Part shown: piece after piece, positions 53,952 to 55,238 of the stretch
How positions within the stretch are numbered: position 1 is the stretch's first letter
Layout of the letters: the number at the start of each line of letters is the position of its first letter
Assembly (NCBI RefSeq): GCF_039649665.1
Contig: NZ_JBDJAW010000009.1
Coordinates: 124,001-188,000, forward strand
Direction of reading: 5' to 3'
Source: Microbispora sp. ZYX-F-249
Lineage (GTDB): Bacteria > Actinomycetota > Actinomycetes > Streptosporangiales > Streptosporangiaceae
Length of the DNA stretch: 64,000 nucleotides
Made by a program: the position numbers and the translations under genes
The notes under the pieces: generated by a model
Databases searched by the model: none
Told to the model about the DNA's origin: nothing
Seen by the model: only the letters and a program-made list of their open reading frames with translations

Positions 53952-54713
53952 TCACTCCCGCTCACTCTGAGCACGGAGCAGAGCGATGGCCGTGCGGATC
54001 GCCGCGGTCCGCGAGCGCGCCCCTCCGGCGGAAACGAACCGCTCCAGGAAGGTCAGGTCGTCGGCCCCGAGCATCAGGTTCAATTTCGCGAGCGCCGGGC
54101 GCTCGGGGTTCAGCGGCTTTCGCGTTCTTATGTGATTGTGCCGCTCGTTATTGTTTTCTGAATCGCTGTGGGGTCGACGAGATTCGAACTCGCGCTGTAC
54201 GGTACCTAAAACCGTTGCCTCTGCCGATTGGGCTACGACCCCTTTTCCTCTTCCTTTGCCCGCGAAATTCTCCGTCTGAGAATGACGGTTGGGGCAGAGG
54301 AATCGCAAATTCTCTTTTCTGTTGTCCAGCCAATTGCCGTTGATGTGGTCGATGTGCAGCGTAAGCGGCCGACCCTGCCAGGTGCCGCCTATCCTACAGT
54401 CTGCGCAGACGTATGGAACTCCTACTTCGTGTAGCGCCCGCCTGAGCTTGCGGGGCTTCTCGCGGCCGGATCCCGGAGGTAGCAGCACGAGGATCTCCGC
54501 GGGCAGGTATCGCCGCGGCGTCGTTGCGCCTCTGTCCGGCAAGGGCCTGCCGAAGTGGGTTGTGTCGATACCGAAGTGCTTGAGGCGGCGGCTGATGTGG
54601 GCGTGGGCGCCGCCGGACCACGGGATGCCGAGATGACGCAACACGTCGGCGATGCTGCTCGCGGCTGCCGCCGCGTCGGCGAGCAACTCTGGGGTGTACT
54701 TGTACTTCGCCAT
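53952..54713 (-). CDS. HNH endonuclease frame running through a tRNA into an RHH-like tail
   Basis: 253 codons without a stop. Residues 1-55 resemble the DNA-binding start of phage-type HNH enzymes (YTPELL, IADVLRHLGI, HFGIDTTHFG). Residues 100-148 are the HNH core: Cys103-Ala-Asp-Cys106, LHIDHINGN with His120 and His123, Asn131 and FLCPNRH. The second zinc knuckle is Cys140-Pro-Asn-Arg143; the family usually has Cys at this place, so the zinc site may be damaged. Codons 158-182 coincide base for base with a tRNA gene on the same strand. Residues 205-250 look like a ribbon-helix-helix domain (AKLNLMLGADDLTFLERFV, then SRTAAIRTAIALLR). Whether this is one protein or separate products is open. 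The flanks are poorer in GC, a sign of transfer. ATG 54713 gives the family N-terminus but has only GGGG upstream. Confidence 0.6.
   Translation of the reverse strand: MAKYKYTPELLADAAAAASSIADVLRHLGIPWSGGAHAHISRRLKHFGIDTTHFGRPLPDRGATTPRRYLPAEILVLLPPGSGREKPRKLRRALHEVGVPYVCADCRIGGTWQGRPLTLHIDHINGNWLDNRKENLRFLCPNRHSQTENFAGKGRGKGVVAQSAEATVLGTVQREFESRRPHSDSENNNERHNHIRTRKPLNPERPALAKLNLMLGADDLTFLERFVSAGGARSRTAAIRTAIALLRAQSERE
54169..54242 (-). tRNA. Class I tRNA with UAG anticodon, unusual
   Basis: 74 bases fold as a cloverleaf. The acceptor is GGGGTCG/CGACCCC; the D arm has a 3-bp stem (GCC/GGC); the anticodon stem is ACGGT/ACCGT with loop TTTAGGT; the variable loop is five bases; the T arm is GCGAG-TTCGAAT-CTCGT. 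CCA is not encoded. The anticodon reads UAG, matching Leu codon CUA, but bacterial tRNA-Leu has a long variable arm, which is missing. Amino acid identity is therefore unclear. The gene starts exactly in frame inside the HNH ORF. Confidence 0.7.
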
Positions 54714-54770: not shown

Positions 54771-55238
54771 TCAGGAAATTCCCAGCTCTTTTGTGAGGCG
54801 GGCGACGTGACCGGTGGCCTTCACGTTGTAGAGAGCCTTCTCGATCTTTCCGTCGGGGTCGATGACGAACGTGGACCGGATGACGCCCATCACGGTCTTC
54901 CCGTAGTTCGTCTTCTCGCCGTACGCGCCGTACGCCTTGTGCACGTCCAGACCGGTGTCGGACAGGAGCGGGAACGCGAGCGCGTCGCGCTCGCGGAACT
55001 GCCGCAGCTTGGCGGGCTTGTCCTTGGACACGCCCAGCACCACGAAGCCCTGCTCGGTGAGCGCGCCGAGGTTGTCGCGGAAGTCGCAGGCCTGCTTGGT
55101 GCATCCGGGGGTCATCGCCGCAGGGTAGAAGTACAGGATGACCCGCCTGCCGCGAAACGACTCCAGCGAGACCTCGTGGTCGTCGGCGTCGGTCAGGGTG
55201 AAGTCCGGCGCGGCGTCGCCGGGCTGGAGCTTGCTCAT
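54771..55238 (-). CDS. bcp: Peroxiredoxin, BCP/PrxQ type
   Basis: 155 residues. A thiol peroxidase that reduces peroxides. Peroxidatic Cys46 and resolving Cys51 lie in TPGCTKQACDFRD, the PrxQ pattern. Surrounding motifs LQPGDAAPDFTLTDADD and VILYFYPAAMTPGCT are standard. The ATG at 55238 follows GGAGGA; an earlier in-frame start would add 18 odd residues. It stands alone, divergent from the DUF3618 gene. Confidence 0.94.
   Translation of the reverse strand: MSKLQPGDAAPDFTLTDADDHEVSLESFRGRRVILYFYPAAMTPGCTKQACDFRDNLGALTEQGFVVLGVSKDKPAKLRQFRERDALAFPLLSDTGLDVHKAYGAYGEKTNYGKTVMGVIRSTFVIDPDGKIEKALYNVKATGHVARLTKELGIS

What the first reader, a model, noticed from the sequence alone, without database searches (positions are those of the whole stretch)
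53952..54713. HNH nuclease, tRNA and RHH-like tail share one open frame
One stop-free frame of 253 codons covers an HNH endonuclease, then codons 158-182 that are exactly a tRNA gene on the same strand, then a ribbon-helix-helix-like segment. The alignment of the tRNA 5' end with a codon boundary, the lack of a stop, and lower local GC suggest a mobile composite. The nuclease may have captured the tRNA, or the tRNA may be the target or regulator of the protein. The alternative is a chance open frame over three independent elements.
Basis: partly seen in the sequence, partly recalled or inferred. Interest (0 to 1): 0.75.

Follow-up and report, generated by a model that had tools for sequence, protein, structure and literature searches.

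The report
tRNA gene inside a nuclease gene
In soil bacteria related to Microbispora, the tRNA gene for one rare leucine codon lies in frame inside the gene of a DNA-cutting enzyme, and the enzyme's cutting half and its tRNA appear to have been swapped between species as one block, which suggests a selfish gene that carries its own replacement for what it may cut.

Summary
It is very unlikely to be chance. Of 101 distinct family loci with this tRNA, 44 have the HNH upstream and 27 of these an RHH downstream; 0 of 57 HNH-less loci have an RHH. In 22 of 27 an HNH segment and the RHH share one open segment. In the 19 clearest, tRNA length, HNH entry phase and five spacer lengths all combine to one frame, and stem pairs of the tRNA are all standard (300 of 300).

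The tRNA was not captured: it sits beside bcp in HNH-less relatives too. The HNH is the invader; phage relatives often abut tRNA genes, with tRNA-Leu(UAG) over-represented. In sister species the upstream flanks match (mostly over 90%) while nuclease half + tRNA differ, and tRNA distance follows the nuclease half, not the flanking gene. Best reading: a homing-type endonuclease exchanged together with its embedded tRNA. Translation through the tRNA and cutting of rival tRNA alleles are inferred, not shown. The window copy has lost a conserved cysteine.

The parts
53952..54713 (-). fused open reading frame HNH - tRNA - spacer - RHH-like, 253 codons plus stop
   Evidence: frame conserved in relatives
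54243..54713 (-). HNH endonuclease part, codons 1-157 (N-terminal part about codons 1-54, nuclease half about 55-157); this copy has Arg at position 143 where the other 11 aligned fused proteins have Cys
54169..54242 (-). tRNA-Leu(UAG), 74 nt with A73, short variable loop (class I shape); only UAG tRNA found in this genome
54093..54168 (-). last base of codon 182 and the 25-codon spacer between tRNA and RHH-like domain
53955..54092 (-). RHH-like C-terminal domain, 46 codons
   Evidence: orthologues match RHH/ParD families weakly
54002..54552 (.). approximate extent of the exchangeable block (nuclease half + tRNA + spacer + most of the RHH), placed here by analogy with other species pairs
   Evidence: not measured on the window copy itself
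54771..55238 (-). bcp-type peroxiredoxin gene, upstream neighbour of the tRNA in the family (gene name recalled, not from a family search)

Best explanation
A free-standing, homing-type HNH endonuclease gene invaded the tRNA-Leu(UAG) locus next to bcp, and its reading frame runs into the tRNA. In one architecture it ends at a stop codon that the tRNA supplies (TAG, nucleotides 8-10). In the architecture of this window it passes through the whole tRNA in frame, as a 25-residue stretch, into an RHH-like domain, so one piece of DNA is at once tRNA gene and coding sequence. Inferred: an unprocessed transcript gives the HNH-RHH protein, while processing by RNase P yields the tRNA and destroys the message, which keeps the nuclease scarce. 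Inferred: the nuclease cuts other alleles of the tRNA-Leu(UAG) locus, and repair copies the block together with its own uncut tRNA, so that CUA decoding is kept. Shown by comparison: conservation of the frame and of the tRNA, sites without the HNH, and joint exchange (or joint divergence) of nuclease half and tRNA.
For: Frame: in 19 of 19 clearest loci the tRNA spans 25 codons (phase 0 + 74 nt or phase 1 + 73 nt), and spacers normalised to the domain start are 25, 43, 46, 64 or 67 nt, all 1 mod 3. RHH in 27 of 44 HNH loci, 0 of 57 HNH-less loci. 3 of 19 have no ATG/GTG/TTG between the first tRNA codon and the RHH strand (one of them, L034, has its HNH broken further upstream). dN/dS in five Microbispora: HNH 0.16, spacer 0.46, RHH 0.15. 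tRNA: 300 of 300 stem pairs standard in 15 distinct tRNAs of these loci, two-sided changes at 11 pair positions, D-stem pair 13-22 left out. CUA falls on mostly-leucine columns in 9 of 11 cases in bcp and 15 of 21 in HNH. Sites without HNH: bcp next to the tRNA. Exchange: of 40 pairs with the HNH N-terminal half at 0.88 DNA identity or more, 24 have the nuclease half under 0.82; mean tRNA identity 0.805 in these, 0.971 in the other 16. tRNA distance follows the nuclease half (partial Mantel given bcp 0.40, 0 of 2000 permutations as high) and not bcp given the nuclease half (-0.12). Viral relatives: 39 of 70 end within 20 nt of, or inside, the next tRNA; 14 of these 39 are tRNA-Leu(UAG) against 31 of the other 460 tRNAs. 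Precedent: SegB and the phage tRNA region (passages).
Against: No transcript, protein or cleavage data. 5 of 27 HNH+RHH loci are not in one open segment (L008, L011, L029, L035, L125); in 3 of the 22 that are (L009, L013, L150) the RHH match is weak or partial; 8 of 44 HNHs are split by a stop or frameshift; the window copy lacks a conserved cysteine. 16 of 19 fused loci do have a possible start codon before the RHH. In seven loci of other genera the tRNA codons show dN/dS 0.82, so the linker has little protein constraint beyond that of the tRNA. The nuclease half also correlates with bcp (0.69), and 3 of the 24 swapped pairs, all with L013, keep tRNA identity of 0.95 or more. Fast local divergence instead of exchange is not formally excluded. 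Species pairs are not independent, and HNH-less pairs at high bcp identity are few (2 and 4). The HMMs were built from some of the loci they scored.
Confidence: 0.6

Rival explanations
1. Chance open frame over three unrelated elements.
For: The window tail alone matches no Pfam family; 5 of 27 relatives with both domains are not in one open segment and 17 of 44 HNH loci have no RHH.
Against: RHH only where an HNH is present (27 of 44 against 0 of 57), compensating junction and tRNA lengths, spacers all 1 mod 3 in the 19 clearest loci, low dN/dS in the RHH.
Confidence: 0.05
2. HNH and RHH are two proteins of one element: the HNH message ends at the tRNA when the transcript is processed and the RHH is started separately downstream; the shared frame is a relic or a coupling device.
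For: A possible start codon near the RHH in 16 of 19 fused loci; spacer less constrained than either domain; tRNA codons show dN/dS 0.82 in seven loci of other genera.
Against: 3 of 19 have no ATG/GTG/TTG there (2 of these 3 have an unbroken HNH); the frame is kept through length changes of tRNA and spacer.
Confidence: 0.19
3. The HNH is a defence or toxin enzyme aimed at phage DNA or at tRNA itself, with the resident tRNA as a resistant variant.
For: Phages carry related HNHs and tRNA-Leu(UAG) in arrays; the RHH resembles ParD antitoxins weakly; the tRNA differs more between HNH carriers than between HNH-less genomes of like bcp identity.
Against: Residence and exchange at one fixed locus fit homing better. 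The padloc library was not searched, so this was tested little.
Confidence: 0.14

Closest known systems
T4-type phage SegB, free-standing homing endonuclease of the tRNA region (PMC13096335, passages seen; Brok-Volchanskaya 2008 seen only as a reference entry)
   Same: Stand-alone nuclease beside tRNA genes, linked to recombination and inheritance of the tRNA region.
   Different: SegB is a phage enzyme, recalled as GIY-YIG (not tested); the passages seen mention no tRNA inside its frame. Here it is an HNH, chromosomal, with the tRNA in frame.
HNH endonucleases of phage and mycobacterial tRNA arrays (PMC3185647 and PMC5966550, passages seen)
   Same: HNH genes recur among tRNA arrays; the nearest phage relatives of this HNH found here mostly lie in such arrays.
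   Different: The passages seen do not describe overlap with the tRNA, tRNA-supplied stops or read-through into an RHH.
phrog_10822 'HNH endonuclease'
   Same: Best PHROG match, codons 2-154 of the HNH part.
   Different: The profile is 245 long and matched only to position 154-165; the RHH tail is not part of the match.

Membership tests
HNH endonuclease | HNH profile match and conserved Cys/His residues | tested here: met
   for the family; the window copy itself has Arg for one of the conserved Cys and scores just below the Pfam cut-off
free-standing homing endonuclease | patchy presence at one fixed site with empty alleles | tested here: met
   44 of 101 loci with HNH; bcp-tRNA sites without it; 7 changes of presence on the bcp tree
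free-standing homing endonuclease | co-conversion of the gene and neighbouring sequence | tested here: inconclusive
   Block replacement and Mantel tests fit; direction and mechanism not shown
free-standing homing endonuclease | site-specific cutting of HNH-less or foreign alleles | not testable with these tools
   needs purified protein
tRNA-Leu(UAG) | cloverleaf, UAG anticodon, A73, CUA read as Leu | tested here: met
   charging with leucine not tested directly
bacterial class II tRNA-Leu | long variable arm | tested here: not met
   74 nt with short variable loop; Streptomyces counterparts 84-86 nt
type II toxin-antitoxin system | separate toxin and antitoxin genes | tested here: not met
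   The RHH lies in the nuclease's frame
RHH (CopG/ParD-type) DNA-binding domain | profile match above curated cut-off | tested here: inconclusive
   Orthologous tails match below the cut-offs, the window tail not at all

The most novel reading that the evidence does not exclude
A cut-and-replace element in which nuclease and antidote cannot be separated: an HNH allele destroys rival alleles of the cell's only CUA-reading tRNA gene, and the uncuttable replacement tRNA is encoded in frame inside the nuclease's own coding sequence, with polymorphic nuclease-tRNA pairs circulating among species. The same DNA is read as tRNA or as protein, not both from one transcript.
Probability: 0.35. Interest if true: 0.92.

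Novelty: new variant of a known kind. Interest (0 to 1): 0.78.

Why it matters
A complete tRNA gene, the only one found for its anticodon in this genome, kept in frame inside a protein gene is a clear case of dual coding and makes the conflict between tRNA processing and translation testable in one gene. It also offers a system for asking whether a nuclease can drive the turnover of an important tRNA gene in cellular genomes, as homing endonucleases do in phage tRNA regions.

Tried and rejected
Capture of the tRNA by the nuclease: rejected, same tRNA at the same locus without HNH. Movement of the whole HNH-tRNA-RHH unit to a new place in M. siamensis (L004, no neighbours found): rejected, bcp lies about 6.5 kb upstream on the same contig, and a serine-recombinase gene sits next to the HNH start; in G149, G109, G075 and G052 the bcp-tRNA distance is about 7 kb, contents not examined, and in G130 the two are on different contigs. 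CUA reassigned because of the odd tRNA: rejected, CUA sits mostly on leucine columns. A first automatic count of HNH frames with a short motif misassigned several frames and was replaced by HMM hits, recounted. Structure prediction of the fused protein never ran: the machine was busy. Plasmids: one weak hit only.

Limits of counts. 108 loci = 13 (its L015, a second row of L014's place, dropped), 15 of the 29 (the eight Microbispora ones repeat, six others are Streptomyces or cyanobacterial) and 80 regions fetched out of the 121 genomes with a pattern match. Seven repeat a contig, judged by equal contig length, leaving 101. The 79 of 200 family genomes without a match were not examined; a long-variable-arm pattern hit 1 of 200, but its sensitivity was not checked. 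The six pairs shown as mosaic were picked from the discordant pairs (a seventh pair, L004/L005, of like type, was run as a contrast). In one search, 30 of 36 HNH loci were used; the others lacked the dividing motif or were short. In one search the HNH value of the non-Microbispora group is not used because its ends were not aligned. The viral set is the best 80 of 529 relatives (a capped list) plus 8 phage regions, 70 after removing near-copies.

Full report
What is there. The finding lies on the minus strand. From ATG 54713 to the stop at 53952 one frame of 253 codons stays open. Codons 1-157 are an HNH endonuclease, codons 158-182 are a tRNA gene with anticodon UAG, then come a spacer of 25 codons and an RHH-like domain of 46 codons. 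The genome is a Microbispora: contigs of named Microbispora species have the same lengths as contigs of genomes that the search calls same genus. The tRNA is 74 nt with a short variable loop, unlike the 84-86 nt tRNA-Leu(UAG) of Streptomyces. Of 57 tRNA matches in the genome, the other 56 were fetched; ARAGORN names no UAG among them, and the one stretch without an ARAGORN gene, L098, has no UAG anticodon loop by eye. So this is the only such gene found. The UAA leucine tRNA is also short, 76 nt; the CAA, CAG and GAG ones are 84, 86 and 87 nt.

The frame is conserved. I collected 108 loci with this short tRNA-Leu(UAG), 101 after removing seven repeats of one contig. All 108 have 7 of 7 acceptor pairs and A73. 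An HNH match lies directly upstream in 44 of 101 (two, L110 and L140, are 20-bit remnants) and none in 57; an RHH follows in 27 of the 44 and in 0 of the 57; in 22 of the 27 an HNH segment and the RHH lie in one open segment. With stricter scores 19 loci remain; in two of them, L034 and L171, the HNH is broken further upstream. In all 19 the tRNA takes exactly 25 codons: where it is 73 nt long the HNH enters one base earlier (phase 1), where it is 74 it enters in phase 0. Spacer lengths normalised to the domain start are 25, 43, 46, 64 and 67 nt in these 19, all 1 mod 3. The five not in one segment are L008, L011, L029 and L035 (off frame) and L125 (HNH split). Three of 19 (L026, L033, L034) have no ATG, GTG or TTG between the first tRNA codon and the RHH strand. 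In five Microbispora dN/dS is 0.16 for HNH, 0.46 for the spacer and 0.15 for the RHH; the five share a nearly invariant tRNA. In seven loci of other genera it is 0.31 for the RHH, 0.42 for the spacer and 0.82 for the tRNA codons. So the RHH is a real coding domain, the spacer looks translated in the same frame, and the simplest way to make the RHH in all lineages is translation through the tRNA. This is inference from comparison; no product has been seen.

The tRNA remains a tRNA. Among 15 distinct tRNAs of these loci, 300 of 300 stem pairs are standard with two-sided changes at 11 pair positions; position 13-22 is C-A in all 86 distinct tRNAs of the larger set and was left out of the pair count. 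Of CUA codons, 9 of 11 in bcp and 15 of 21 in HNH fall on columns where more than 0.6 of the other sequences have leucine. HNH genes use CUA more often, 21 of 5364 codons against 11 of 15455 in bcp.

A second architecture. Of 17 HNH loci without an RHH, 10 enter the tRNA in phase 2 and stop at TAG, tRNA nucleotides 8-10: L025, L027, L032, L037, L102, L124, L127, L143, L144, L145; L125, which has an RHH, does so too. In 42 of 44 loci the frame of the last HNH segment ends inside or beyond the tRNA; the two remnants do not reach it. In five of five Streptomyces loci (45-49% identity) the HNH stops 3-54 nt before a long-armed tRNA-Leu(UAG).

Invader, not captor. bcp lies upstream of the tRNA in nearly all loci, with or without HNH (46 of 51 HNH loci before removing repeats; 62 of 63 rows scored there as without HNH, which besides the 57 loci include L016 and five Streptomyces loci that were not scanned for HNH in that call). 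Microbispora G006 (L100) has no HNH and about 220 bp between bcp and tRNA. On a bcp tree of 100 rows HNH presence needs 7 changes, at least 4 forced by starred branches, and RHH presence 10, at least 6 forced (quick tree, many weak branches). The tree cannot tell gains from losses.

Exchange as a block. In L026/L033, L005/L009, L006/L007, L028/L036, L027/L029 and L124/L127 most upstream 60-base bins are over 90% identical down to about -310 from the tRNA, the middle of the HNH (a few are 78-88%, and L124/L127 has gaps); then identity drops to 47-92% through nuclease half and tRNA; in L026/L033 and L005/L009, and further out in L028/L036, it rises again beyond the RHH. Systematically, of 67 HNH pairs with bcp protein identity of 0.93 or more, 40 have the N-terminal half at 0.88 DNA identity or more; in 24 of these the nuclease half is under 0.82, with mean tRNA identity 0.805, while in the other 16 tRNA identity averages 0.971; 3 of the 24, all with L013, keep tRNA identity of 0.95 or more; the N-terminal half is less alike than the nuclease half in only 4 of 67 (rows with L004 have a false bcp column because of an insertion there). 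For 30 HNH loci tRNA distance follows the nuclease half (Mantel 0.43; given bcp 0.40, 0 of 2000) and not bcp given the nuclease half (-0.12). The N-terminal half follows bcp (0.81), the nuclease half somewhat less (0.69). At bcp identity 0.85-0.90, 58 of 103 HNH pairs but 0 of 20 HNH-less pairs have tRNA identity under 0.85; at 0.95 and above, 14 of 37 against 0 of 2. Pairs share ancestry, so these are not independent counts.

Relatives in viruses. tblastn finds the HNH in 181 phage records; among the 40 rows listed the highest identity is 46.7%. Of eight regions opened, six have the HNH among tRNA genes: Citrobacter phage Maleficent, Pseudomonas phage phiPsa347 and Vibrio phage D69 have tRNA-Leu(UAG) next, Rhodococcus phage Dorin tRNA-Gly, Pseudomonas phage vB_PaeS_B8 tRNA-Arg; in Gordonia phage Mareelih the frame passes through tRNA-Tyr. 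Two (L200, L202) have no same-strand tRNA next. With the best 80 viral loci added, 70 distinct: 54 have a same-strand tRNA downstream, 39 end within 20 nt of it or inside it, 20 overlap it (one by a single base), 2 read through; eight stop at tRNA nucleotide 8. Close spacing is partly due to dense arrays (165 of 382 tRNA-tRNA gaps are 20 nt or less), but upstream tRNA-to-HNH-match gaps that short are only 10 of 63, and tRNA-Leu(UAG) is 14 of the 39 neighbours against 31 of 460 other tRNAs, Fisher p 9e-7, without correction for relatedness.

How it likely works, and status of each step. Shown by comparison: a nuclease present or absent at a fixed tRNA locus, overlap with the tRNA, in-frame passage, nuclease half and tRNA varying together. 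Inferred: read-through translation, mutual exclusion of tRNA processing and translation, cutting of rival alleles, immunity of the linked tRNA. Known precedents are phage homing endonucleases of tRNA regions (SegB, passages) and HNH genes in tRNA arrays (passages). Searches for a tRNA inside an HNH or other coding frame, or for this short tRNA-Leu, in the held open-access library gave nothing that I recognised in the listings; most subscription papers are missing there, so this is no proof that it is unpublished.

The window copy. Its HNH has CPNRH where the other 11 aligned fused proteins have Cys, so this copy may no longer cut, while frame and tRNA persist. Eight of 44 HNH matches are split by stops or shifts (L014, L034, L037, L125, L127, L150, L157, L171), as expected of homing endonucleases after fixation (general knowledge). 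Some splits could be assembly errors.

Noticed in passing
L086 / G000:C13:69410-69482: The genome's tRNA-Leu(UAA), counterpart of Streptomyces bldA (recalled), is also 76 nt with a short variable loop, unlike the other three leucine tRNAs (84-87 nt).
   Followed up: partly
other families of the class: The short tRNA-Leu(UAG) pattern also hits 13 genomes outside the family, in seven other families.
   Followed up: no
L017:1430-2968 minus: In M. siamensis a serine-recombinase gene (Pfam Resolvase and Recombinase) lies at the 5' end of the HNH, with about 6.5 kb between bcp and HNH; four other genomes have about 7 kb there.
   Followed up: partly
L044:3001-3150: Only about the last 21 HNH codons remain before the tRNA in Sphaerimonospora thailandensis, perhaps kept as the tRNA's leader.
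   Followed up: no
HNH genes of the family: HNH genes use CUA, the codon of the embedded tRNA, about five times as often as the neighbouring bcp gene.
   Followed up: no
L042: A cyanobacterial contig carries a relative of the HNH inside a stretch with 19 tRNA genes.
   Followed up: no
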